A stretch of DNA of 64,000 nucleotides from Allomyces arbusculus (Eukaryota; Blastocladiomycota; Blastocladiomycetes; Blastocladiales; Blastocladiaceae): positions 100,878 through 164,877 of the forward strand of contig JADHYV010000050.1 in assembly GCA_027604705.1 (NCBI GenBank). The letters are read 5' to 3'. Position numbers and translations under genes: made by a program. The notes beneath the pieces were generated by a model. It ran no database searches. It worked only from the letters and a program-made list of their open reading frames with translations, and was not told where the DNA came from. Below, piece by piece: positions 1,672-34,130 of this stretch; the stretch's first letter is position 1; each line of letters begins with the position of its first letter.

Positions 1672-4600
1672 ATGGTCTGGATTCTTTGCGTCCTGTATCT
1701 CGTCGCAGGCGGGCCAAGTTGCTCAATATGGAGGTCATTTGCAGCTTCCGGGGTGCAAGGAGCTCTTGCCATGGTCCGGGTGACATTGCCAGTGTGATCG
1801 GCGATTCATTGCGGTTCCCTGACAACCATTCGCGCACGTTTCGCTCGCACCGATACGAATTTTGCCAAATGCACCGATCTTGTTTCTAGACCGCACCGGC
1901 CGTCAATGTTGTAATGACCCCCCTTGCATCTACGTTCCACGACGCAAACTTTCTCGCCAACTTTTCGCAACTTCTTGATGCGTGGTCCAACCAGACTGGG
2001 ATTCGAGTCAACGTTTGGTGGCCCGATGCGGTACCGATCAATGGCTCTTTTTACCGATCTGTCGCCATTGTTGAACCCCTCCCTCACAACAGTTCCCCAG
2101 TACTCGTATACAACCGACGACATGAGGGTGTTTCTCACGGTTTTCGCGCAGCAAAAGAGCAATACTTGGGACCTGTTCGGGATGGATGGTATTTTTCCAG
2201 ACCTTCTGTTGTTGTGGAAGCGCTCGTGCACTTTACTTCGCGCAAACGTTCTCAGACACCCTCTTCGCAATCATAGTCGTATGGACGGCTGCATTTGCCG
2301 AACTTCTCTACCCCATGAATGAAATTGCCTCAGCCGCGGCAATCTCTCGTCATGACCCATCTGCGCTCGTTCCAGGCACAGTAAACGGATCTCTGTATGT
2401 TCTGCCTTGCCCCGTTTATTCGACAGGCTTTGCGATCCGAGCGTGGAGATCGGGAGCTCATAATGGCCGTTCGGCTTTGCTTTGCAGGTACGCCCTGCCC
2501 TTGTTTGCTGACGGTGGGGCGTTATTCTTTCGCTCCGACCTCTTGGCCAAGTATGGGTTTCAACGACCGCCGACGACGGTCCGATCGATTCTTCTCTACC
2601 CGCTTCTTACTGCACTCCCCCCGCTTCTTGCTGCACTCCACCCGCTTCTCCACCCCCTTCTCGCTGCTCACCGCCTGTCTCACACGCTCTTAGTGGGAGG
2701 AGATGGAGACGATGCTCACGACGATTCTGTACGTTTGACGCTTCTGCAGGTGCGGGCTGACACTTTGGCGCGAATGAACTTATCGCCCTCGTTTTTTTGC
2801 GATTCAGACCCGGCGAACGTGCGCTTAACCCCTCACTCACGGGTTTCGTGGCGCAACTGCGCTCGTACGAGGGCCTGACGTGCAACGTCGCCGAATGGCT
2901 CGCGGGCGCCAACCTGACTATGTTCCTTGACACGGCCTCGTCGCTCTCGCTGTCCACACCCGACGCTCAGGCGCAGGCAGCGGCGGTCCTGGACCGGTTC
3001 CGTCGTTGGACCACGCAAGGGCTTATGTCTGGGCTATTTTTTGGCGAAGTCGAGACGATCTGGGTATTCGGCTTACAAAACAACGCCGTGTTCATGCGCA
3101 TGTGGAGCAGCCAGACCAAGTGGTTGCGCGAAAACTTGCCGAACCTGTCATGGGGTGTCGCACCCATGCCGGGCGAGTCGGCCGACCTGGTGGGCGCGTC
3201 GACGCTCGGCGGCGGCATGATTGCTGTCAACCGATTCACAAACAATGTGACGCGTGCGATGCGCGTCGCCGAGTTCATGTCGAGCCCCGAGGTGCAACGG
3301 CTCTTGACGATAGGTCTTGGTTTGCGGCCAACGATTCCGACGCTGTTCGATGGTACGCCATTCATTTGACGGTGATGCCGACGGGTTGTACTTTTTGTTT
3401 CAACCGCTTCACTTGATTGCCCTGATCCCGATTTGCCATTCCAGACCCGGCAGTGAACCGCGTTTATGGCGCCGACATGCTCAAGTCAACAAGGGTGGCG
3501 GTCCTTTCTCATGATACTTTCGATGAGAAAGCCGCTCAATATACGTAGCGTAGTACACTCACCCTTTTCGCCCTCTAGATTACGAACCGACCTTCGAAGA
3601 ACGGCCAGTACTTTGCCGTCTCGAACATCATTTACACGGCCGTCAACCTGGTTATTGCCGGGTTCGCTGACGCGCACGCCGCAATCGCGTCCATGAACTC
3701 GGACATTGCCGACCTGCTCAGAATTGACCATTTCGGCCCACCGCAAGACGTCATGTGGAATAGCGCGCCCGCGATTGCGGTCATGGTTATTGTCCCGTCC
3801 CTCGTTTTGGCCACTGTTGTGCTGCTCGCATACATGATCTGGTCTCGCTCCTCATTGCGCGCGCGCCGAATTCCGATCAACACGCTCGTCGGCATTCTTT
3901 TCGGGTCGTTGATAGGATCGCTCACGCCGCTGGCGTATATTGGCCCGCCGACGCCGATGACTTGCCAGCTGCGCGTCACTTTGCTTGGCATGGGGTTTGT
4001 GGTCATGACGAGCTGCATGGCTGCACAAGATTTTCGCGTCTTCCTGATTGTCTCGAGCCCATTGCGCCGCGTCGCTTCGGACATCAACCGCATCTTGTGG
4101 CAGTCGCTCCTCGCCGTGTGGGTCCTCGAGGGCGCGCTGCTGGGTCTGTGGCTTGGGATCGACCCCATGATGCCCGTCGACGTGATTGTCAACCACGAGT
4201 GGCGGTTCACCGGGTGCGCGTCGAAGAACCGAACGTTTTCCGGCGGCATGTTTGTTGCGCAGTGCCTGTTGTGCGGTGCCCTGGTCGTCGCGTGCATCTG
4301 GCTCGCTGCGCGCAGCCGGCGCGTCTCGCCAAAGACGAGCAGGTCGGCCGAGGCCATGTCGACCGCGTCGTATTTGATCGCCCTTGGCGCAAGCGCAACG
4401 GTCCGTTGGGGGGGGGGGGGGGGGGGCCGGGGCGGGGCCGGGGGGGGGGCGGCGGCGGCGCCGCCCCCGGCGGGGCGCGGGGGGGGGGCGGGGGGGGGGG
4501 CGGCCCCGCGCCGCGCNNNNNNNNNNCGCTGGGGGCAGCCGGGGGGTTCTGCCAAACCCCTGCCGGTCGGCCGTGGCCATTTCGCCCGCGTGGTTTTTTT

Positions 4601-5467
4601 TCGCCCTTGGGGCAACCGCAACGGTCCGTTCCCCCCCCCCCCCCCCCCCTGGCACTTTTCGACTCCGACCGCTCACATAATTCCACTAGCTGATTGCACT
4701 TAGCGCCCTCGACCTCGGCCCCGTCCCGCACATGCTTACCTTGACGTCGGCCATCGTTCTGTGCGTTTTCAGTGTCCGGTGGGCGTATATCGTCGCGCAG
4801 CTGCGCGCGTCCCCAGCGTCGGACGGCTCTGGTTGGATGGGTAATACCGTCCACGCCCTCTCGACGGCGCTCAACGACGAGGCAAATGCAAGCAGTGAAC
4901 TGCTGTTCGGCGAGTCTGACGGAGGTGCGCGCGCCATGATCGAGACCAAGTCGCTCGCCGTGCGATTTGCGCACACGGAGCGTGCGCTCGCCATATCGCC
5001 GTGGATGCAAGGTGTCGGCGTCGCTCTTGGACTGGATTCGCAGATTTTGGTCGTGCGTTCGGTGTGCACAACCTGCCCTTGATTCTCTCCATTTTCGGAC
5101 TTGCTGACCCAGATCTTGTACCCCCCATCCGCAGAAACCGCACGGTCTCGTGTTCAGCCTGCGCCGCTTTGTATCGGTTTCGCCGTGCGACGCCGCGTCG
5201 CGCTCATTCACGGCCGTCTTTGGAGCGGGTATTCTCGAGTTTCATGCGCAGTCGGACGCTGATCTCGCAACATGGCACGCGCGCCTCGAGGACGCAGCCA
5301 CCGCTGCAGGCTTTACGTCGACCCATTCGACACTCGTCAAGCGCACTGGCACGCTCGTGCCGCCACCGCAACTTCTGCCCGGGTCGGCCAGGGTCGTGTC
5401 AACGCAGGTCATGTCCGCTGGCGGCTACGACGTGGTCACCGCACGCGGTACTGTGGTGGACTCGTGA
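1672..5467 (+). CDS. Class-C 7TM receptor with extracellular bacterial-type solute-binding domain
   Basis: This is probably a cell-surface receptor of the fungal SBP-7TM_3 type. The ATG at 1672 begins a hydrophobic signal sequence (MVWILCVLYLVAGG). Later exons give a periplasmic-binding-protein-like domain: GTVNGSLYVLPCPV near 2380, ADGGALFFRSDLLAKYGF near 2510, and an uninterrupted block at 2797-3369 with YEGLTCNVAEWLAG. The tail of this domain (RPSKNGQYFAVSNIIYTAVN) reads from about 3580 straight into membrane segments at 3750-4350. Sequence after the N gap carries another membrane segment near 4740-4790. A last exon from 5135 (KPHGLVFSLRR) resembles the end of a PH domain and stops at 5465-5467. 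Several introns are needed and not all junctions could be fixed. The 4380-4690 part is damaged by assembly. The ligand is unknown. Confidence 0.65.
4379..4690. other. Assembly gap (10 N) inside poly-G/poly-C, probable misassembly
   Basis: Ten Ns lie at 4517-4526 between long G- and C-homopolymer-rich stretches. The sequence CGCCCTTGGCGCAAGCGCAACGGTCCGTT at 4379-4408 recurs almost exactly at about 4601-4628, once followed by a G run and once by a C run. This looks like one locus represented twice around a homopolymer. It interrupts the receptor gene between membrane segments, so any translation through it is unreliable. Confidence 0.8.
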
Positions 5468-6344: not shown

Positions 6345-8537
6345 ATGTCTGTACTTTCTGATTTTGTTTCTTCCTTGCATCAGCAAGTAGGCGGCTGTGA
6401 CGCGTGCGATGTGGGAATCAGTCTGGAACTAGTCGAGACGGCCAGGCTCGCACAACCCTGGTCAAGAATGTTAACACCTGTCAGTTCAACTTCTCCGAGA
6501 ATGTCGCATTGCCGCCAAAGACGCAATATTTGACGATGCCCAGGGTGGCGCTGTGCTTTCAGGAAGGGCCGTTTACATTGGTCGCAAAGTGGCGCACATT
6601 GCAACTGGCTGCAGCTTTACGCACTCATGTGTTTGATGTGTTTGCGGTCCCTGGCCACAAGAAGTGAATGTAGCGCGCCCTCTTCTCGCGCAGTTTACCG
6701 ACACGCGTGCATCGTGCCCCAAAGTATCAGCAACCACTCCACCCACTCGGTCGCCATTTCCATCGTGTTCCCATCATGACTGGAGGAGACACCTCCACGT
6801 CTGGTCGTGGCGATGTGTGCCTGTCAAGTGTGCGCAAATCCCTCGACCAGGCACTCAACAATTCCGACGATGTGCACCTCTCTCGTGTCATTCTCGCGGA
6901 GCGCATCGAGGACGCATTCAGTTCAAATCGGCGACGATGGTCTAGTTTTCGCTGTGCATGGAGTACCGTGTCCATCGGGCGTGTCGCACGTACATGGAGC
7001 ACGGAGGGGTCGAGGAAGACTGGCAAGATCCTCAGTTCCTGCGCACGGTTCGTGACATATCGACGAGCAATGGTGCAGGACGCTGCAGGGCTCCATGGCG
7101 CTGATCTCTTCATGCCCGTTCTTTCTGGCTGTAGATCTTGACACCAATCACGGTCCCGGGCGGCAGTCACGTCGGCCTCCTCGTCACGCCAGGCGTGCAG
7201 GACATTGACTATCACAATGACAGTAACGACGCGATTGGTGTCGATACGATCATGCCCGAATACCTCGATCCTGTGCGTCGCTCTGGCGCGCGTACGAGTC
7301 GATCATGGGCGACGTGTTCACAATGTTGGCCACCAACATCGCGCAGCAGTTTGCCAAGACGCTTACAACACAGGGCAAGACCGCCGTCATCCAGTTCGAG
7401 TGGTTTGTCATGAAACCCCCGCCCAGCGCCGCAGAACGTAACGTGCGCCAGGCCATGGCAAATCAAGAACAAATCACCATCAAGCGCCGTGATCGGACCC
7501 GCTATTTCAACGCATGAGCAAGTGGGTGAGCCGTACTGCCAAGATGAAGAAATCGCTGCTCGAAAAGACCATTCGGAAGTACGCAAGGGCTCTCGTCGGC
7601 TATGATCATAATCTCGCACAAAACCACGAATATGCCGAACTGGTCGCGCTTCCACGTGCTGTGGACGCTCTGCAAGCGTCGTGTCCGCCCAAATCGGGGC
7701 CAGTTTGCGCGCACTAAGTCGTCGATAATTCAGCTGGTGGAAACACCATGCCGCCCTTGGCGTTGCCGCCGAGGAATCTGGCGCGCAGGTGCGCAAGCAT
7801 AGGAGGAGGATGTCGGACCACTCGACGGCAACGTCGTCAAAGGCCCTGCATCTGCTGAAGAATCTGCTACCGCTCGTTCTCCCTACGACGCTGATCTTGT
7901 CGTCGCTGCATCTTCGCCCGCTGCGACTGAGCTTCCACGCGAGGATCTGTCCGTGATCTGGCCGGACAACTACCCCAACCTCGTCGCGCAACAAGTCAAG
8001 TCGGTCCTCAAAACCATCATTGCCATGCTGCGCGCGCCTCCGCGGCAACCAACGACCCCACAGAACCTGCTCTGGCTGATCATCCACCTGATCCAGACCC
8101 AGCTCGACCGTGTGTGGCTGCACCAGGCGCACCTGCAACGCATATTCGAGACGGGCGACCATGACGTGGACCGTATCAAGCAGGCCATGGACATCGCGGA
8201 GCACTTTGCACGACCCCGGGGCTGGTCCTGTCCTACGCGAACCGGCGCCGGTACGTGCTTGTCGACCGGGACTTGGCCGAGCACGCGCGCGCTGCTGGCC
8301 GATACCGACGTGATGCCGCCGTATATGGTGGACGCGGTCGTGGGCCAGTTGGCCGAGTACGCGCCGGCCGATGAATGGCGGCGACGTTCATGACTCTGCG
8401 CGTATTGTGTTGTTGCCGATGGTGGCGCGGCAGATGCGGCGGTGGCGAGTCGCGCTGCAGACCGCGACCGATCACCCAGTCAAGGTCTTGCTGAACAGTG
8501 AGTGGCAGTGCATGACGTGGGACGCCGGGGCTAGTTG
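6345..8537 (+). pseudogene. Decayed member of a local paralogous pair (copy B)
   Basis: A series of coding-like blocks changes frame several times: SSVRKSLDQALNNSDDVHLS near 6835-6890, PITVPGGSHVGLLVTPGVQD at 7142-7200, MGDVFTMLATNIAQQFAKTL near 7305-7365, and a block at 7953-8210 (WPDNYPNLVAQQVKSVLKTI). Near 8220-8260 the best continuation is in another frame (LVLSYANRRRYVLVDRDLAE). The end, near 8430-8510, matches copy A (RQMRRWRVALQTATDHPVKV). The blocks look like one ancestral protein of roughly 600 residues, unrecognised in family. Multiple frame changes favour a pseudogene, but unpredicted introns cannot be excluded. Confidence 0.4.
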
Positions 8538-24852: not shown

Positions 24853-25004
24853 CGGGACGGTGGTGTAGAGACGAGGTTTATTAGCAAACTCCTTATGCCG
24901 CAGTGCGACAAGATTGCCGCTAGGAGACATAAATATGCGAAACAAGCCTTGCATCGGGCCGCTCAGGGAACCACGGTGGTGGTGGCCACGGGACGGTGGT
25001 GTAG
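24853..25004 (-). mobile_element. 5'-truncated copy of the non-LTR retrotransposon at a tRNA-Pro 5' end
   Basis: Bases 24869-24986 (118 bp) are the exact reverse complement of the 3' end of the full-length element at 33577-33694. The copy is bounded by a 16-bp direct repeat CGGGACGGTGGTGTAG at 24853-24868 and 24989-25004. The second copy overlaps the first 15 bases of the tRNA-Pro gene. This is the signature of target-primed reverse transcription with 5' truncation. Two extra bases (CA) sit between the body and the tRNA-side repeat. Confidence 0.9.
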
Positions 25005-25061
25005 TGGTATCATACTCGCTTTGGGTGCGAGAGGTCCGGGGTTCAATCCCCCGTCGTCCCC
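24990..25061 (+). tRNA. tRNA-Pro(UGG)
   Basis: The 72-base cloverleaf has acceptor stem GGGACGG paired with TCGTCCC and discriminator C (usual for eukaryotic tRNA-Pro). The anticodon arm is CTCGC-TTTGGGT-GCGAG with anticodon TGG, and the T arm is CGGGG-TTCAATC-CCCCG. No intron is present. A T8 run starts right after the gene and is a good RNA polymerase III terminator. The internal A and B boxes are intact. Its 5' end abuts a truncated retrotransposon insertion. Confidence 0.95.
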
Positions 25062-25200
25062 TTTTTTTTGGGCCTATTCGGTGGCGGCACACTTCAGAGC
25101 TTGTGCAAAGAGGCGCACGCACGCCAGGCTGGTGCGCCTGTTATTGCAGTGCACCTGCAAACAAGCATTGTGGTGCTAGTTCCAGCAACACATGAGGATA
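25062..25200 (+). repeat. Left arm of inverted duplication downstream of tRNA-Pro
   Basis: The 139 bases after the tRNA (T run, GGGCCTATTCGGTGGCGGCA, then to CTAGTTCCAGCAAC) recur almost identically in inverted orientation at 25555-25693, downstream of the second tRNA-Pro. With the tRNA included, each arm is about 210 bp. Differences are few (for example CAGTGCACCTGC against CGGTGCACTTGC). Confidence 0.9.
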
Positions 25201-25554
25201 AAATTCCACTTGGCATGGATGGCAACTGAGACAGGTTTGGCCAAGTATTGCCAACATGCATTGGGAAACGTCATGAATAAGCCTGAACTTGCCAGCCAGT
25301 GACAGAGCCGATTCTCGTCTGCAAAGCCTGCATCCAGGAGCCATCATGATCAAACTAGAGAGTAGTTCTGGCTTGTTTGAGTTGTTTGCTGTGACTGTGT
25401 TGCCCTCAGCAAGTGAAGTGCTGCTGCATGATTTGGTTGCTGATTGTTGCACAGCCCGCTTCATGTTTTGTGGTGCTGCAGTGCCATGACTGCTTCAGCG
25501 CGCGTACTTTTGGCCTTGGATGTGTCGTGCAAACGCCATTACCTTGATGAGTGT

Positions 25555-25693
25555 GTGCATATGGGTTGCTGGAACTAGCACCACAATGCTTGTTTGCAAG
25601 TGCACCGCAATAACAGGCGCACCAGCCTGGCGTGCGTGCGCCTCTTTGCACAAGCTCTGAAGTGTGCCGCCACCGAATAGGCCCAAAAAAAAA
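25555..25693 (-). repeat. Right arm of inverted duplication downstream of tRNA-Pro
   Basis: This is the inverted near-copy of 25062-25200. The two arms are separated by about 350 bases (25201-25554) with no recognised gene. Confidence 0.9.
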
Positions 25694-25765
25694 GGGGACG
25701 ACGGGGGATTGAACCCCGGACCTCTCGCACCCAAAGCGAGTATGATACCACTACACCACCGTCCC
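25694..25765 (-). tRNA. tRNA-Pro(UGG), inverted second copy
   Basis: It is identical over its 72 bases to the copy at 24990-25061, with anticodon TGG, discriminator C and a downstream T run (leftward). The first 15 bases (plus-strand 25751-25765) also form the left target-site duplication of the full-length retrotransposon, which begins one base beyond the tRNA 5' end. The tRNA gene itself therefore stays complete. Confidence 0.95.
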
Positions 25766-25846
25766 GTGGGTCCCTTTAGACCTCCCCCCCCCCGGCCCCC
25801 ACGACGACCTAACTCGCTGCAAACGGTTTTCCAACGTTCCCCGACA

Positions 25847-27075
25847 ATGTCCACGAGCGCGCCCGCCGGTGTGGTGGGTGGCGCCCCGCCGCCCGAAGTG
25901 GTGGTGGTTGATGGTGGAGGTGACGGTGGTGGCGGCGTGAACACCACCCCCGCCTCAGCGCACGAAACCTCGACCGCACTGACTGCTGCGACTGCCATGG
26001 AAGTCGACACGCCCGCCGGCGATACCGACCAACCCGCGGACCAGCAGGACGATCCCGACCTCGACCGGCCGTGGCGCGACCACCGCGGCCGCCGCATGCG
26101 CCACGTCTCGGCGGGCTTCAAGCTCGACGATTTCCGCACCCAGCAGACCGACTCGCACAAAGCGCTCATCGACCGTGCGGCCCGTCTCGTCCCTCGCTAC
26201 TGCGCCTCGGCCACGAAGTTCCGCGTCGAGCGCCTGGGCACCGTTCCGTACATCGCGTTCGATGTCTTCGACGTCGCGGAGCTCCGCGCCCTGCAGCAAG
26301 CGGGTCTCCCCATCGCGCCCGCGAACGGCCCCGACGGCGGCCGCGTTGCGGTCCGCGACATGACCATCGAGGGGGAAGGGTCTGGTCTCGTCACCGTGTG
26401 GGTGATGGGGCTGGCGCCACAGTGGACACGCGAGTCCCTGCTGAATGCTCTCCACGGCGCCAAGTGTGATGTGCTCGGCATTCGCGAGCTGCGCGCGGTA
26501 GACCGGTCGCAGCGCAGGTGGACGGCGCAGCTCGTTTGCGAACCGGCAGCCCACGATGAGATGTTGAAGAAGGGCGGCGCTGTGCTCGGCGACAATATTG
26601 TCTATTTTGCCTCTGGCCGGACGTCACTCAGTGACCACCTGGACGAGGTTCGCGGCCGCACACTATGGCTCCACGGCCTGCCCCGCGGGTACACGGACCC
26701 GGACCTGTGGAATGCACTGCCAGGCGGCCTCTTCGGCCACGCGACAGTGCTGCGCGCCGTGCGCGACAAGAAGGTAGCGCTGACCAGCACGGCCGAAGTC
26801 ATTCTCAAATCAGAATCGGACCTCCGTGCCGTAATCAAGTCTGAAATGGTGCTCGACAAGAACGTGATTTTTGCCACCAGGGTTGGTGAGCATGTGTGCT
26901 ACGCTTGCGGCTCGCGTGAGCATCGTCTCTCGAGCTGCGCCCGAGCGCACCTGGCCCGCATGCGCGGTGCGAACTGGAATCTGGCCCCGTCGCGCGCGCG
27001 CCGTGAGGGGCGTGCCATCGCCCCGCCCCGAGCCCAGCCATCTGAGCGGGATGCGCAGTCCCCGCCCGCCCCGTT

Positions 27076-27106
<31 letters not shown>

Positions 27107-28098
27107 CCCCCGCCCTCGCCGCCGCGCTTGGACCCAGCGTCGGGCCCGCGGTGGTCGCACGTCGCTGCACCCGTGTCGGTGGAGGTGGACCGGCAGCAGG
27201 GCGCTCCCAAGCCGTGTCGGTGGAGGTGGACCGGCAGCAGGGCGCTCCCAAGCCCGCACCCAAGTCGGCGCCCAGGCCAGCCCAGCCGGCATCGGCGCCC
27301 CCGGCGCAGCCGGCAGTGCAGGACGACCCCGTGGCTGCCGCGGCTGCCCATGTCGGTTCGCAGATTGTCCTCGCCCAAGTCGACGCGGCCGTCGGGGCCC
27401 TCGAGCGTGGTGACCACACCGCTGCGCGTGCGCACCTCGACGTGATCGAGACGCTTGAGCGCAAGTACGAGTATGCGTTCAACCAAGGGCTGTTGCTCGC
27501 GTGCCGGGCAGTGCGCGCCGCCATCCGGTCAACTTCGTCGTCCTCTACCTCAAACCCCGCCAAGGCGGGCGCAATGGCCGCGTCCTCGTCCGGTCCCAAG
27601 TTGGCCCGCGCGGTGGCCGCCGCCCCGCCGCCAGCGGGTCCCGCCGCTCCACCCGCCGCCCCGTCCGGGAACACGGGCAAGCGCCGCAAGGTGCCCGCGC
27701 CGAACGGCGCCCGACCAATGGTGATCGACTCGGATTCGGACGGCGACTCGCAACCGCCGTCCCGACGCGCACGCGCGGGCGAGCCGGGCGCTGGGAGCGC
27801 AGCGCCGCCAACGCCAACGCCGTCCTCGTCGCCGCCGTCTCGGGCTCCAGTCCAGGCCCCCGCCCAAGTGCCTGCGCCTACGGCGTCGCCTGCTGCCTCC
27901 GCGCTGCCGACTGCGACTCCGTCGCACCTCGCGCCCACCGCTGTGCAGCCGTCCGCGCCCGCCGCGTTCGCGCCGCCCAGTGATCCCGCTCCTGCTTTCG
28001 CCCTGACCGGCGCGCCGGCTGGCTCGTCTCCCTCCACGAGCCATGCTGCGCCGGCGGGGCTGTCCGTCGTGAACGCACCCGCACTCGCCCATGAGTGA
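25847..28098 (+). pseudogene. LINE ORF1 (gag-like, CCHC zinc knuckle), frame broken by a 41-bp tandem duplication
   Basis: This is the nucleic-acid-binding ORF1 protein of the retrotransposon. The ATG at 25847 starts a Pro/Val/Gly-rich leader. A structured middle follows (26100-26880), then a CCHC knuckle CYACGSREHRLSSC at about 26899-26940, then a Pro/Ser-rich tail. The sequence 27173-27213 is repeated at once at 27214-27254. Because 41 is not a multiple of three, the frame entering the repeat (ending near 27445) differs from the one leaving it (27151-28098). The last four bases of ORF1 overlap the ORF2 start in an ATGA-like arrangement (28091-28098). Confidence 0.85.
27173..27254. repeat. 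41-bp perfect tandem duplication inside ORF1
   Basis: The unit begins GTGTCGGTGGAGGTGGACCG and ends CTCCCAAGCC. It occurs twice back to back with no mismatch seen, which suggests a recent event in this copy or an assembly duplication. Confidence 0.9.
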
Positions 28099-31000
28099 GG
28101 GCGCGGCAGATGGGCCAGCAGGGCCGCCAGGTCTCACGCTGCTGGTCCAGAACGCCCGGGGGTTGAGGGGCCCTCGCAGCTGGGAGACCCGAGCCGACGC
28201 GCTCAAGTGCCTGCTTGATGAGTCGGGCGCGACGGTGGTCATTTTGACGGAGACTCATTTGACGACGAGTTTGACTGCGGCGGTGAACTTTCGGCTGCGC
28301 GACTTGCAGGGCGAGCGGAGCTGGGTTGCGCGGCATGCAGTGACTGCCGATGGCGAGTTGCCAGAGGGCGAGGGGACTGGTGTCGCGATATATTTCCGTA
28401 CCGAGTTCCATCCGTTTTTAGCTGAGGCCGCGACCTTCCGAGGTTACGTCCTTCAGCAGAATCTCCGCACAGCGGAAAACGGCCGGTTGGCCGTCTTCGC
28501 GGTGTACATGCCGCACGACCGGCGGAACAATGGCGTGGCTTATCGCGCGGCGGGCGAGTGGCTCGTGTCGCGTGTGCGCCGCGCTGTGGAGTGTGGTCAT
28601 TCAGTCTTGGTCGCGGGGGACTTCAATTCCAGCTCGATGAGTCGTGATGCCGCTGTTGTTATCCAGTCGCTGACCCGAATTGGCTTGGCCGACGTGGCCG
28701 AAACCCTCAATGTTTTAGACGGAACCGGCCCGGTCCAGCAGCGCACGAACGGGACGACAACAAGGAACCGGATCGACCGCGTCTTTGCGACGCCCCTAGT
28801 GTCCCGGGCGTGCTGCCGATTCGCAGTGTCGCTCACGGCCACAGTCGGCGCGCTAAGCCCGGGGGTGGAGAAGGTCGCGTGTGTGAGCCCGTGTTCGATC
28901 ACGCATCGGTCATAGTGGAAACGACGCTGTCCGGCCTCTTCGACCGTGATTTCGTGCGCGCGTTACGTCGCGAGCTGGCGGGCGCGGCCCGGCAGCTGCC
29001 GGATCCGCAGTCGACGACAAGGGAGCAGTGGGAAGCGTTTGCCGCGGACTTGGAGGTGCGGTTGCGCGGCCCATTGTTTGCCAGGCGGCAGCAGGATGGC
29101 GACGTAGACGGGATGTGGGAGGTGATCCGCAACGCGGTCGAGTTGGCAGCACGCGCGAAGTTGCCGTTGCGTCGTGTTGGCGGTAAAATGGCGGAGTGGC
29201 GCCCGACGGCGCGCACCGACCCGCTTTCGCTTGCGCTGAGCGACCTGTGCAGGTGGCTGCGCGATTACCCCTCCCTTGCACTCCCGCCGCGTGTGGTGGA
29301 GGCTGCGCGCAGTGCTGGCGCAGATGCAGGGATCATCGACCGGCTCGCCGGACCGCTGGACGTGGGCGCACCGGAAGAAGCACGCGCGGCACGCAAGGCC
29401 GATGGCCGGCGCCTGCGCAAGCACCTCTCGGTCGCGCGCAGTGTCGCGGACGCAGAGAGGCAGCGCACGCGCATAGACCGGCTCATCGACGAGCGCGACG
29501 AGTACTTTGGGTCGGATTTGCGCCAGTTCATCAATTCAGCGCTCCTGCGGCATCGCATTCCTGCGTCGGTGGACCGTGTCGTAGGCGCAGACGGGACGCT
29601 GTCGCGCGAGCCAGAGGCAGTCAAGGCTGAGATCGCGCACCAGGTGCAGACGTGGTTCGATGCGCAGGCAACGGTTGCGTTGGAGGCCATGGACCCGTTT
29701 TGGCGAGACGCGTTTTCCCCTGTCGCGCACGTCGATGGCGACATTTGGGAGGGTCTCATGGCGCCCATTTCGGCCGAGGAGATTGGGCGCGTCCTTCAGC
29801 TGTGCGCGCTCGATCGCGCACCTGGCCCATCGCTGATAACGCTTCGTCTCTTTGCCAAGGCTGGCGACGCGGCGCTCCGGGCACTCTCCACCTTGTTTTC
29901 CGAGTGCCTGGCGAATCGCCGTATGCCGGCGGCATGGCGCATGGGGTTGATCTATTTGATCCCCAAGACGAGCGAAGGGTTCACAGGTTTGGCCGCTGGG
30001 ACACGCCCAATCACCTTGCTCGAAACCGCGTCCAAGCTGCTGATGAAGGTCATGCTCGAGCGCGTGCACGGCGTCCTGGTCACGCACAAGGTGCTACGCG
30101 GAGCGCGCTTTTCCGGGGTACCCGGATCGGACACGTCGGCACCGATCGCGATTCTGCACGCAGCCGCGATGCAGGCGCACGCGAGTGGGGAACCAGTCTG
30201 GATCTACTTCGAGGATAAAAGTAAAGCCTACGACTCAGTCCCCCACTCACTGTTGCGCCTTGCCATGGCGCGCATCCACCTGCCGCCGGCGTTTGTCGAG
30301 TTCTATTTCGCGGGCATGATAGAGGGTCGCACCGTGCGGGTCATCACGCCGTTTGGGCCGTCGGACGTGATTCGCGTCGAGCGCGGGATCCCGCAGGGAG
30401 CTGTCGAAAGCCCATTCCTTTGGAACGTGTTTTACGACGTATGTCTCGCAGCGATCGAGGCTGAGGCGAGCAGGGAAGAGAACGCAGCGCTCAAGATGGG
30501 CGTGACGTTGGTCGCATCCAAGGGTGCACACGAGCGCAGCAGCAGCGAGGGTGAAGGTGCGGTCGTGGAGGAGGAGGACGGGGTCGCACGCCTGCGTGGT
30601 GGGACCGTGGTCGCGCGCCTGCAGGTCGCGGCCATCGCGTTCATGGACGACGCTGCGTTCTACGCGCGCAGCAGGGCCGGGTTGCAGCGCACTATGGACT
30701 TGGTCAACCAGTTCAACGAACTGGCCAAGATCCGTGCGAACCCGGCCAAGGGCGCCATGCTGAACATCAATGCGCACGGCGACGAGACGGCGACGCAGCT
30801 GGAAGTCGGTGGTGTCGCCGTCCCGTGGGTGGGCGCGTCGTTTCGCTATCTGGGTGTGTTCGTGAACCGGACCGTGTCGCCAGCAATGGGGTTTCGCGCC
30901 GCGCGCGACGAGATCAAGCGCGGCCTGGACCTGCTTAAGCCGCGTCGGATCACGGGCAAGGCCGCCGTCTACCTCATGAACGCGGTGATCCTGCCCGCGG

Positions 31001-33450
31001 CCGCGTACCGCACGCGCGTCGCAGTCCCGACGCACAGTCAGCTAGAGAGGCTCGATGCATCGATTCGGGCCCTGGTCCGCTCCAAGTTCCATTTGCCATA
31101 TCTGTTCCCGTCGGCCGCGCTCTACCTGCGGTCGCTGGTCGGTCTCGGCTCGTTCGAGGATCTCGTCGTTGCTCAGCACTTAACCGACATCGCCGTCATG
31201 CTCCAGGATCGCGGTCCCGGCGGCGTTCCTGTGCGCGTCGAGATCGGTCTGCTTCAAGCCAAGACGCTGTGCCCAGTCTCGCCGCTGTCGTGCCCAGACC
31301 TCGCTAAGCCGTACATCAACACCAACCAGAAGGGGCCGCGCGCGTGGTTCGAGCAGCTCATCCCGATGCTGGTTGGCCGAGGCCTGTCGCTCATCGACGT
31401 GCGAGACGAGTTCTCACTCGTGCGTGACAATGCACGCATCCCGATGTCGCTCGTGTTTCCCGATTTCGTTCGGCCGCAGCGCGGCGGGCGCGTCGTTTGG
31501 CAAGTAACGACCATGGAACGGGGCCTGTACCTGTTCGAGGACGCAGTCCCGCGCAACCTGTGGCGCGACCGTGTGCCGCCGTACGATGTCGCAACGCGGT
31601 TGGGAGCTGTGCAAGCGCGGTGGGCAATTGCACGGCACCGCGAGACTGACCACGACTGCAGCGGCGTGGCCCACACGGGACGCGACGACTGCCGAATGTT
31701 CGACGCAGTCATGGAATGGCGCGACGGCGCGTATGACGACCTCGCACTTCCTCTCCACCAGGTGGAGACGGTGCGTGGGGCCGGTGCGGTGATTGACGAG
31801 CGTCCGGGCACGCTGGTGGCGGCCGCAGATGGCGACGCGTACTGGTGGAACCGGACCGTTCACCGCGACCGTGGCAAGCGTGTGCTACAAGTATATACAG
31901 ACGGTTCCCTCGACGCGACGACTGGCTTCGCTGGCTCTGGTGTGTACTTCCCCGGACCCGACGAGCGCGCCATAGACGTGCGCCTGCCGCCGGGCCCAAT
32001 GTCCTCGACACGCACCGAGCTGTTCGCTCTCCTCGTCGCGGCCGACCATGTGCCGGCGGGCACGCAACTCGACGCGCGACTCGACTCGCGCGCGATGATT
32101 GACGGAGCCGCGGTGCAGCTGCGTGCTGCTCCTGGTCTGACAGCACGCCGTGTGGTTCGCGCGACAAATACAGATCTGTGGTCCGCGCTTCGGCTCGCCA
32201 AGTCGGTGCGCGGCGTCGATTTCAAGCTGACATGGGTCAAGGGCCACTCGGGCGACATTGGCAATGAAACGGCAGACCGGCTCGCCAAGCTCGGCGCACG
32301 GCGCGACGCAGGCCAGTTTACCGCGATCTCAGAGGCAGCCGTCAGGAGCACACGTTGGGACCTGGCATCGACGCCCGCGGTTCTTGGCGTCCCGGCATGG
32401 TCGGACCCGCGCCGACTTGTGCTGCAGCTCGCTGATGCTGAGCGGTGCGCGGCGGTCATGTCGATCGCTCTCGAGGGTGTGCCGTTTGCCTCGGCAATCG
32501 ATTGGGGGGCGACGGGTCTTGCGATTCATGGTGGGGTGCGCCCACTTGCGCGAGTCACGTCGCGCGAGCAGAATTTGGCCACCTCTTTTCGGCTCCGCTC
32601 GCTGTTCGGCCAGCTTGTGACGCGTGTCGTGCTCACCGAGATGCCCGGCACGCGGTACCGGGGTGGGCCCAAATGCTTGTGCGGTTCTGACGACACGCAG
32701 GACCACTACCTCGCATGCCCACGCAGTGCGGGCGACCGGGCACGCGTCATTTCGCAGCTGCGCGCCAGCATTGCTGCCACGGTCCGGTCTGCATTCCCCG
32801 AGGGGATGCAGCGTGGCCTGGGCGACCGTCCCGACCAGTTCGCGCAGTGGCTGCTGCCGCACGACCCAGGCCCCGCCCGCCTCCGCCGCCTCGCGTCCAC
32901 GGCGATCACGCGCGACGACCTCACCCGGTGGAGAGAGTTGTTTCCGGCCACCGTGAGCGCGTCCCAGGTGGGCGACGTCGCGCCGCAACTGCCGCGCCCG
33001 CGCCGCATGCTAGCGCTGGTGTTCGACCTGTGCTCAACCACGGTCCAAAAGGAGCTGCGCCGTCCGCACGTCCGGGCCCTCGTCGCCGACTCGCCAGTCC
33101 TGCCACCGCAGCGGCCGCCCCGTCCACGCGCACCGCGCAATGACGGCCGTCGCCGTCGTACAACCGGCGCCGATGCTGTTGCAGCCCCGGCTGGGGCTGC
33201 CGCCCCTGCAGCGCCCGCTGCTGAGGGTGCTGCCGAGCAGCAACAGGCCCAAGCACCCCGGGCTGGCCGCCAGCGCGGTCCGCCACGTCGCCGCTACCGT
33301 GAGCCACGGTGCGATATTTGTGCGGTGCGCGAGTCGCGCCACTCCCTCGCTGTCTGCCGTGCGCGGCTCACAGCCCGCCAACGCGTCGCGGATGTTCTCC
33401 GTGGCGCCGATCCGTCGAATTTGCCAGGTTGGTCGGGTGGAGGGGGGTGA
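28091..33450 (+). pseudogene. LINE ORF2: APE endonuclease, reverse transcriptase, RNase H
   Basis: This is the polymerase protein of the retrotransposon. The endonuclease part (28091-28915) has QNARGL, TETHL, AGDFNSS and RIDRVFAT. The expected catalytic DH follows only after a switch to another frame (FDHASV near 28890), at a GTGTGTG run. The second frame is then open to 33450. It carries RT motifs (YLIPKTSEGF, DKSKAYDSV, GIPQGAVESP, and FMDD at about 30643, a variant of the usual YxDD). RNase H follows at about 31890-32310 (YTDGS, TELFAL, DSRAMI, KGHSGDIGNETADRLA). Two Cys/His clusters (CLCGSDDTQDHYLAC and CDICAVRESRHSLAVC) close the protein. It is about 1,785 codons if continuous. Confidence 0.9.
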
Positions 33451-33742
33451 TGTAGCGTTCTGGACCGCGTGTCTGGGGGCGTCTTGAGCGTCCCCCTCAT
33501 GGCGCTCCGTGCGTTCCTGAGGAGTGTTAGGCCCGGGTTCCGGTGGGCGAAGGGTTGGACAGACCAATTTTAGCGAGCCACCACCACCGTGGTTCCCTGA
33601 GCGGCCCGATGCAAGGCTTGTTTCGCATATTTATGTCTCCTAGCGGCAATCTTGTCGCACTGCGGCATAAGGAGTTTGCTAATAAACCTCGTCTCTACAC
33701 CACCGTCCCGCGAAACCTAGTCAACACACCACGATGCCGTAC

Positions 33743-33827
33743 TGTGTCTCCTTGCGGCAATCTTGTCGGACTGCAGCGTAAGGAGTTTGCTAATTAGCCT
33801 CGTACGACTCTTCACTACTGTCCCGCG
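33743..33827 (+). mobile_element. Diverged 3'-end fragment of the same LINE (second in stack)
   Basis: TGTCTCCTTGCGGCAATCTTGTCGG onward matches the last 70 bases of the full-length element (33626-33694) with several substitutions. It is followed by a diverged target-like sequence ending ACTACTGTCCCG at 33814-33825. It is older than the full-length copy by mismatch count. Confidence 0.8.
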
Positions 33828-33986
33828 CGAAGGGTTGGACAGACCATTTTTAGCGAGCCACCACCACCACAGTCCCCTGAGTGGCCCAATGCAAGGCTTG
33901 TTTCACATATTTGTGTCTCTTAGTGGCAAACGTGCCACACTGCATGAGGAGTTTGCTAATAAACCTCGTCTCTACACCACCGTCCC
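33828..33986 (+). mobile_element. Diverged 3'-end fragment of the same LINE (third in stack)
   Basis: The body 33828-33971 matches the last 150 bases of the full-length element (from GAAGGGTTGGACAGACCA) with scattered changes, and ends in the shared AATAAACCTCGTCT. It is followed by CTACACCACCGTCCC (33972-33986), again the tRNA-Pro 5' end in antisense. Confidence 0.85.
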
Positions 33987-34108: not shown

Positions 34109-34130
34109 TATACCACTACACCACCGTCCC
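34109..34130 (-). tRNA. tRNA-Pro 5' fragment (about 21 bases)
   Basis: On the minus strand the sequence reads GGGACGGTGGTGTAGTGGTAT, the first 21 bases of tRNA-Pro, and then diverges. It is followed leftward by no anticodon arm, so it is only a remnant. Its 5' flank (CTCCAGTTTTC on the plus strand) resembles that after the third LINE fragment (CTCTAGTTTTC). Confidence 0.75.

What the first reader, a model, noticed from the sequence alone, without database searches (positions are those of the whole stretch)
24853..33710. Non-LTR retrotransposon that inserts at one exact position: the 5' end of tRNA-Pro(UGG)
Two independent insertions, a full-length 7.9-kb copy and a 118-bp 5'-truncated copy, are both flanked by the same 16-bp target duplication (25751-25766 and 33695-33710; 24853-24868 and 24989-25004). 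In each, one repeat is the first 15 bases of a tRNA-Pro gene plus one flanking base. The element always lies head-away from the tRNA and leaves it complete because the duplicated bases rebuild the 5' end. Dictyostelium TRE elements also favour tRNA genes but insert at a distance. Use of the tRNA coding sequence itself as a fixed landing site by an I/Tad-like LINE looks unusual.
Basis: partly seen in the sequence, partly recalled or inferred. Interest (0 to 1): 0.88.

Follow-up and report, generated by a model that had tools for sequence, protein, structure and literature searches.

The report
LINE that lands inside tRNA genes
A jumping gene, probably of a fungus, inserts at one exact point near the start of several kinds of tRNA gene, and the short piece it duplicates rebuilds the tRNA gene, so the same site can be used again.

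Summary
Both insertions and all four 16-bp repeats are at the stated coordinates. In the host genome (25.9 Mb, probably a blastocladiomycete) I searched with the element's own 3' end. Of 17 3' ends, 9 run into an exact 15-nt head of a tRNA gene (Pro, Gly-UCC, Val-CAC, Gln-UUG), 4 into decayed or uncertain heads, 4 into none. A second lineage, 54-63% identical in ORF2, does the same in tRNA-Met. So the target is nt 14/15, in the A box of several tRNAs, not tRNA-Pro alone. The 14-20 bp duplication reaches back to about the gene's first base, so insertion rebuilds the gene; stacked copies, each ending in a tRNA head, show re-use. The element encodes an APE-type endonuclease, RT and RNase H; this copy is frameshifted. 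tRNA-gene-specific LINEs are already known (NeSL-1_TV, LIN15_SM, LIN25_SM; Dictyostelium TRE/NLTR nearby). An APE/RNase H LINE cutting inside the A box of several isoacceptors and restoring the gene looks like a new variant.

The parts
25767..33694 (+). Full-length element (7,928 bp), no poly(A) tail, 3' end AATAAACCTCGTCT
   Evidence: Bounded by a 16-bp duplication; genome copies share this 3' end
25751..25766 (+). 5' copy of target duplication = tRNA-Pro nt 1-15 plus one flanking base
33695..33710 (+). 3' copy of target duplication
25694..25765 (-). tRNA-Pro(UGG), complete, divergent from the element
   Evidence: ARAGORN
24990..25061 (+). tRNA-Pro(UGG), complete, beside the truncated copy
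   Evidence: ARAGORN
24869..24986 (-). 118-bp 5'-truncated copy (element nt 7811-7928, 100% identical)
24853..24868 (-). 3' target duplication of the truncated copy
24989..25004 (-). 5' target duplication of the truncated copy
25847..27442 (+). ORF1, open from an ATG; CCHC-like motif seen by eye (Pfam zf-CCHC only E 4.1, below cut-off)
28073..28912 (+). APE-like endonuclease frame (Exo_endo_phos, E 2.2e-10); one base out of frame with the RT frame
28648..33447 (+). ORF2 frame with RT (residues 438-737) and RNase H (1080-1217); C-terminal C..C..H..C motif read by eye
33745..33824 (+). Older truncated copy (element nt 7868-7926, 90%) ending in a degenerate tRNA head
33827..33986 (+). Older truncated copy (element nt 7781-7928, 87%) ending in an exact 15-nt tRNA-Pro head (33972-33986)

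Best explanation
It is a site-specific LINE of the APE + RT + RNase H kind in a probable blastocladiomycete fungus. Most likely its endonuclease nicks the sense strand of a tRNA gene inside the A box, after the conserved A14 (or R15), in A boxes reading TRGTGTAG. The freed 3' end primes reverse transcription of the element RNA from its 3' terminus. A second nick on the other strand about 14-16 bp upstream, at the gene's first base, completes insertion. Shown by sequence: the fixed junction, the duplication of the tRNA head, one orientation, 5' truncation, a complete tRNA gene left beside the element, and stacking of copies. Inferred: which strand is nicked first, recognition by the enzyme itself rather than by tethering to the Pol III machinery, and pairing of the RNA end (..CUC[UAC]) with the GTAG primer. 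A sister lineage does the same in tRNA-Met, and a related copy abuts a tRNA-Arg.
For: Element-only pattern: 17 3' ends, 9 followed by an exact 15-nt tRNA head (four isoacceptors, 7 tRNA genes) and 4 by decayed or uncertain heads; random 30-mers from the held DNA, which itself holds these tRNAs and copies, reached 0 mismatches in 26 of 20,000. Paired duplications, head-away, at C50 (x2), C54, C107, C30, C178 and C71. Met lineage: 7 of 12 3'-end matches lie within about 500 bp upstream of tRNA-Met genes by coordinates, and an eighth sits between two perfect 14-bp Met heads; 7 of 11 tRNA-Met matches have an element just upstream. Both lineages join at the same tRNA position: AATAAACCTCGTCTC|TACACC and AATAAATATCGTCCT|TGCGCC. 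Stacks: four heads upstream of tRNA-Gly on C107, two at tRNA-Met on C32. APE, RT and RNase H domains.
Against: Four of 17 3' ends show no tRNA head: C2, C3, C7 and C30:18029. No tRNA was found near C2, C3 or C7; C3 and C7 look like insertions elsewhere with imperfect 12-16 bp duplications, so specificity is not absolute. Only 8 of 27 confirmed GTGTAG-type tRNA genes carry the element, and 1 of 13 Val genes. Related old copies lie near tRNA-Ala and tRNA-Thr of another A-box type (C46, C187). No enzyme assay. This copy's endonuclease and RT frames are out of register. The 3' end shows no unusual fold (z -0.10).
Confidence: 0.88

Rival explanations
1. The element is steered by protein contact with the Pol III machinery (as for TRE5-A or Ty3), and the exact site only reflects where the complex holds it; the endonuclease has little sequence preference.
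For: Several isoacceptors with different heads are hit at the same geometric position; the upstream end of the duplication stays near nt +1 although the sequence there varies.
Against: The junction is fixed to the nucleotide. 8 of 27 GTGTAG-type tRNA genes are hit but 0 of 14 control tRNAs with other A boxes (Fisher p 0.023, weak; tRNAs fetched with element loci were not used as controls). Two lineages use different A boxes. TRE5 lands 40-54 bp away (PMC5911963).
Confidence: 0.3
2. The two window insertions are one event copied by the inverted duplication, the short one being an internal deletion.
For: Both 5' junctions read CCCG-TG; the 118 bp are identical; the tRNA-3' arms are 129/132 identical.
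Against: Flanks just beyond the elements share only 26/35, a score reached by shuffles.
Confidence: 0.25
3. The element has no preference, and only copies next to tRNA genes survive selection in a compact genome.
For: Compact host genome; copies near tRNAs are probably harmless (inference).
Against: Selection does not explain one nucleotide position and one orientation, nor several stacked hits in one gene.
Confidence: 0.03

Closest known systems
NeSL-1_TV (tRNA-Pro), LIN15_SM (tRNA-Arg), LIN25_SM (tRNA-Glu), Kojima and Jurka 2015, PMC4640811 (section 10 and passages seen; the supplementary figure with their sites not seen)
   Same: Non-LTR retrotransposons specific to tRNA genes
   Different: Discussed there with the NeSL clade and relatives, which carry a restriction-like endonuclease (partly recalled; the position of NeSL-1_TV is called unresolved); each named for one isoacceptor. 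Here APE-type with RNase H and several isoacceptors. Whether theirs restore the gene was not seen.
Dp_NLTR-A of Dictyostelium purpureum, PMC5006619 (section 9 and passages seen)
   Same: LINE with an RNase H domain downstream of RT, found 2-6 bp upstream of the mature tRNA, close to where an element of our kind would appear; the word TSD does not occur in the main text and 'duplicat' occurs once, about something else
   Different: Insertion inside the tRNA is not reported; the authors could not place it in a known RNase H-bearing subfamily; its sequence could not be compared here
TRE5 / TRE3 of Dictyostelium (PMC5911963 and PMC5006619, passages seen)
   Same: APE-type LINEs tied to tRNA genes
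   Different: Insert 40-54 bp upstream or 40-150 bp downstream; APE-RT-zinc finger layout; poly(A) tail
Dada DNA transposons (PMC3706591, PMC8869645, passages seen)
   Same: Hit specific positions inside tRNA genes; some families use nt 8-13 in the A box
   Different: DDE transposase, 6-7 bp duplications
Ty3 (PMC5911963, passages seen)
   Same: Inserts at the start of Pol III genes
   Different: LTR element; inserts at the transcription start site

Membership tests
Non-LTR retrotransposon (LINE) using target-primed reverse transcription | RT of RVT_1 type | tested here: met
   E 3.8e-15; PDB matches R2 and LINE-1
Non-LTR retrotransposon (LINE) using target-primed reverse transcription | 5'-truncated copies sharing one 3' end, with target duplications | tested here: met
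APE + RNase H LINEs (I group) | APE-like endonuclease, RT, then RNase H, in that order | tested here: met
   (in two frames here); 7 of the 8 unnamed relatives P0006-P0013 carry all three in one protein
APE + RNase H LINEs (I group) | Placement in a named clade by RT tree | tested here: inconclusive
   The tree holds no named clade references; the element groups with Blastocladiella emersonii and unnamed proteins
NeSL-type tRNA-specific LINEs | Restriction-like endonuclease | tested here: not met
   APE-like domain found; no restriction-like endonuclease among Pfam hits of the pieces scanned
Dictyostelium TRE | Insertion 40-54 bp upstream or 40-150 bp downstream of the tRNA | tested here: not met
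   Junction inside the tRNA
Dictyostelium TRE | APE-RT-zinc finger layout with poly(A) tail | tested here: not met
   RNase H present; no poly(A)
Dp_NLTR-A-like elements | RT/RNase H similarity to NLTR-A | not testable with these tools
   No NLTR-A sequence held

The most novel reading that the evidence does not exclude
A LINE clade of blastocladiomycete fungi has solved the harm problem of site-specific insertion by geometry: it nicks the A box of tRNA genes at A14/R15 and its duplication reaches back to about nt +1. Every insertion therefore regenerates a complete tRNA gene and a fresh target, an endlessly re-usable 'self-healing' site. Lineages then diverge by switching A-box type (GTGTAG to GCGCAG). 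Dp_NLTR-A, reported 2-6 bp upstream of tRNAs, may be an overlooked case of the same thing.
Probability: 0.5. Interest if true: 0.75.

Novelty: new variant of a known kind. Interest (0 to 1): 0.62.

Why it matters
Site-specific LINEs such as R2 are studied as gene-insertion tools but normally break the gene copy they enter (recalled). An APE-type LINE whose duplication spans the gene from its start to the nick leaves a complete tRNA gene and a re-usable site, with several natural target variants in one genome. It makes two questions testable: does the endonuclease read the A box itself or ride on Pol III factors, and how does a LINE switch between tRNA isoacceptors?

Tried and rejected
Organism by small-subunit rRNA: searches did not complete; a host protein was used instead (best 58% identity, Allomyces macrogynus), so the host name stays open. 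Relatives with DNA context: the viral contigs and genome-contig scans found none. A whole-length protein search gave one weak relative; a search on the RT region gave 25. A structured 3' end was looked for and not found. A 5'-end search found only the window copy and one partial relative. A tRNA-Pro-only target was rejected. A clade name was not given for want of named references.

Full report
What was checked. The full element is 7,928 bp (25767-33694); the short copy is its last 118 bp, identical. The tRNA head CTACACCACCGTCCC occurs six times exactly in 64 kb; the scan with up to two mismatches gave seven matches against 0.09 expected. Beyond the full element two older truncated copies follow in tandem, one ending in a degenerate and one in an exact tRNA-Pro head.

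Genome-wide test. A 22-nt pattern taken from the element alone, up to 3 mismatches, gave 17 places and none for the reversed control. Of the 17, 9 continue into a perfect 15-nt head of a tRNA gene: tRNA-Pro three times in the window contig, another tRNA-Pro on C71, tRNA-Gly(UCC) on C54 and twice on C107, tRNA-Val(CAC) on C30 and tRNA-Gln(UUG) on C178. Four continue into degenerate or uncertain heads: C6 and C36 (2 mismatches), C50:134681 (3) and C120 (4). Four mismatches are weak alone, because 674 of 20,000 random stretches reach 4 or fewer, but C120 lies beside a tRNA-Gly(CCC). Four do not: C2, C3, C7 (also 4 mismatches, but no tRNA nearby) and the old C30:18029; cmscan found no tRNA in the loci of C2, C3 and C7. 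The 141-nt search (18 matches) agrees but contained the tRNA-Pro head, so it is not used for the count. All such counts are lower bounds, as the tool says.

Paired junctions. Where both ends could be read, the element start abuts the 5' end of a complete tRNA gene and the element end carries a second copy of its head: C50 (two), C54, C107, C30 and C71 (16 bp each, tRNA nt 1-15 plus one base) and C178 (20 bp); C6 shows the same with mismatches. The element lies head-away in each. In one search, 18 head copies lay upstream of the 40 tRNA genes in held DNA, against 3, 2 and 2 for three control words. Four of the 18 are heads of neighbouring tRNA genes (C16, C3), not insertion footprints, and one at C178 has 2 mismatches and is uncertain.

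Stacking. On C107 one tRNA-Gly is followed by four heads (at 1343, 1433, 1551 and 3328 bp, the last with 2 mismatches), each after an element fragment; on C32 a tRNA-Met has two. On C107 the copies most like the window element lie nearest the tRNA and the most diverged lies farthest, as expected if each insertion rebuilds the target. The third C107 copy stops early, at TTTGCTA, which may be internal priming or a deletion.

A second lineage. The C32 copies end AATAAATATCGTCCT and are followed by TGCGCCAAGACGCT, tRNA-Met nt 1-14 (the outer copy has one mismatch there). Searching the genome with that 3' end gave 12 matches; a separate pattern for tRNA-Met gave 11 places. Seven of the 12 lie within about 500 bp upstream of such a gene, in the expected orientation (C32 x2, C44, C30 x2, C24, C149); of these only the C32 pair was read as sequence. 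C21:266487 is flanked on both sides by the perfect 14-bp Met head. C25 belongs to a copy abutting tRNA-Arg(CCG), for which no second head was found. Seven of the 11 tRNA-Met places have an element just upstream (C32 x2, C44, C30, C24, C149, C21:163); at C21:163 the tRNA head itself is lost. Met copies are 54-63% identical to the window ORF2, the Arg copy 34-40%. On a short C-terminal tree the Met, Arg and C36 copies form one clade (support 1.0), apart from the Pro copy, the old C107 copy and the C46 copy near tRNA-Ala (0.979) (few, partial rows; the own target of C36 is unknown). Aligning the two 3' ends places the junction after A14 in both.

Which tRNAs. Of GTGTAG-type tRNA genes, 27 were confirmed. 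One search gave 36 raw matches, with 22 in the reversed control; 22 printed rows read as tRNAs and 7 do not, 5 unprinted ones are confirmed, and 2 on C166 were not checked. Eight carry the element: Pro 4 of 5, Gly(UCC) 2 of 4, Gln 1 of 4, Val 1 of 13; the one on C146 is cut by the contig end. None of 14 control tRNAs with other A boxes has one (Ala, Lys, Trp, Ser, and one that ARAGORN calls Val with an Ala-like head; 13 were fetched because one search listed them, one came along) (Fisher p 0.023). tRNAs fetched together with element matches (Ala C46, Thr C187, Arg C12 and C25, Ser C71) were left out of these controls; at C46 and C187 the nearest element match is 585 and 381 bp away.

The element. 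ORF2 holds RT and RNase H; an APE-like endonuclease lies just upstream, one base out of frame. tblastn on the C107 relative shows a one-base difference near residue 71, and all 8 unnamed relatives P0006-P0013 carry endonuclease and RT in one protein, so this copy is probably inactive or the assembly has an error. Its RT groups with two Blastocladiella emersonii proteins (support 0.74, weak) inside a set with eight unnamed proteins that is set apart from Rhizophagus and other elements (0.993). A host protein is 58% identical to Allomyces macrogynus. The host is therefore probably a blastocladiomycete; not proven.

How it works. The element's 3' end joins the sense strand of the tRNA at nt 14/15, so under target-primed reverse transcription (established for R2; recalled) that strand's 3' end primes cDNA synthesis. 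The duplication ends near nt +1 whatever the sequence there, so the second cut seems set by distance. Direct reading of the A box fits best, because the two lineages use different A boxes and the junction is exact; tethering to Pol III factors is not excluded.

Known or new. tRNA-gene-specific LINEs are in print: NeSL-1_TV for tRNA-Pro, LIN15_SM and LIN25_SM (PMC4640811, section 10 and passages). Dp_NLTR-A has RNase H and sits 2-6 bp upstream of tRNAs (PMC5006619, section 9). TRE elements insert at a distance (PMC5911963, passages). [quoted passage not shown] In nine library searches nothing that I saw (titles, abstract starts, passages) described an APE-type LINE that lands inside the A box of several isoacceptors and restores the gene. 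Hence: new variant of a known kind.

Noticed in passing
window 34110-34130: A 21-nt tRNA-Pro head relic, longer than the 15-nt footprints, beyond the last stacked copy; not explained.
   Followed up: partly
window 25062-25193 and 25561-25692: Inverted repeat arms between the two tRNA-Pro genes, 129/132 identical.
   Followed up: yes
window 27171-27254: Perfect 43-bp tandem duplication in the C-terminal part of ORF1.
   Followed up: no
window 3579-4700: Class C GPCR-like frame (7tm_3), 58% identical to Allomyces macrogynus proteins.
   Followed up: partly
C107:40887-40989 of the host genome (L008): Copy whose 3' end stops early at TTTGCTA before the tRNA head; possible internal priming at CUA.
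   Followed up: partly
C12:332035-332269 of the host genome (L068): A weak match (E 9.8e-5) to element nt 77-156 starts 83 bp from tRNA-Arg(CCG) in the expected orientation, which would place a full-length 5' end at the tRNA.
   Followed up: partly
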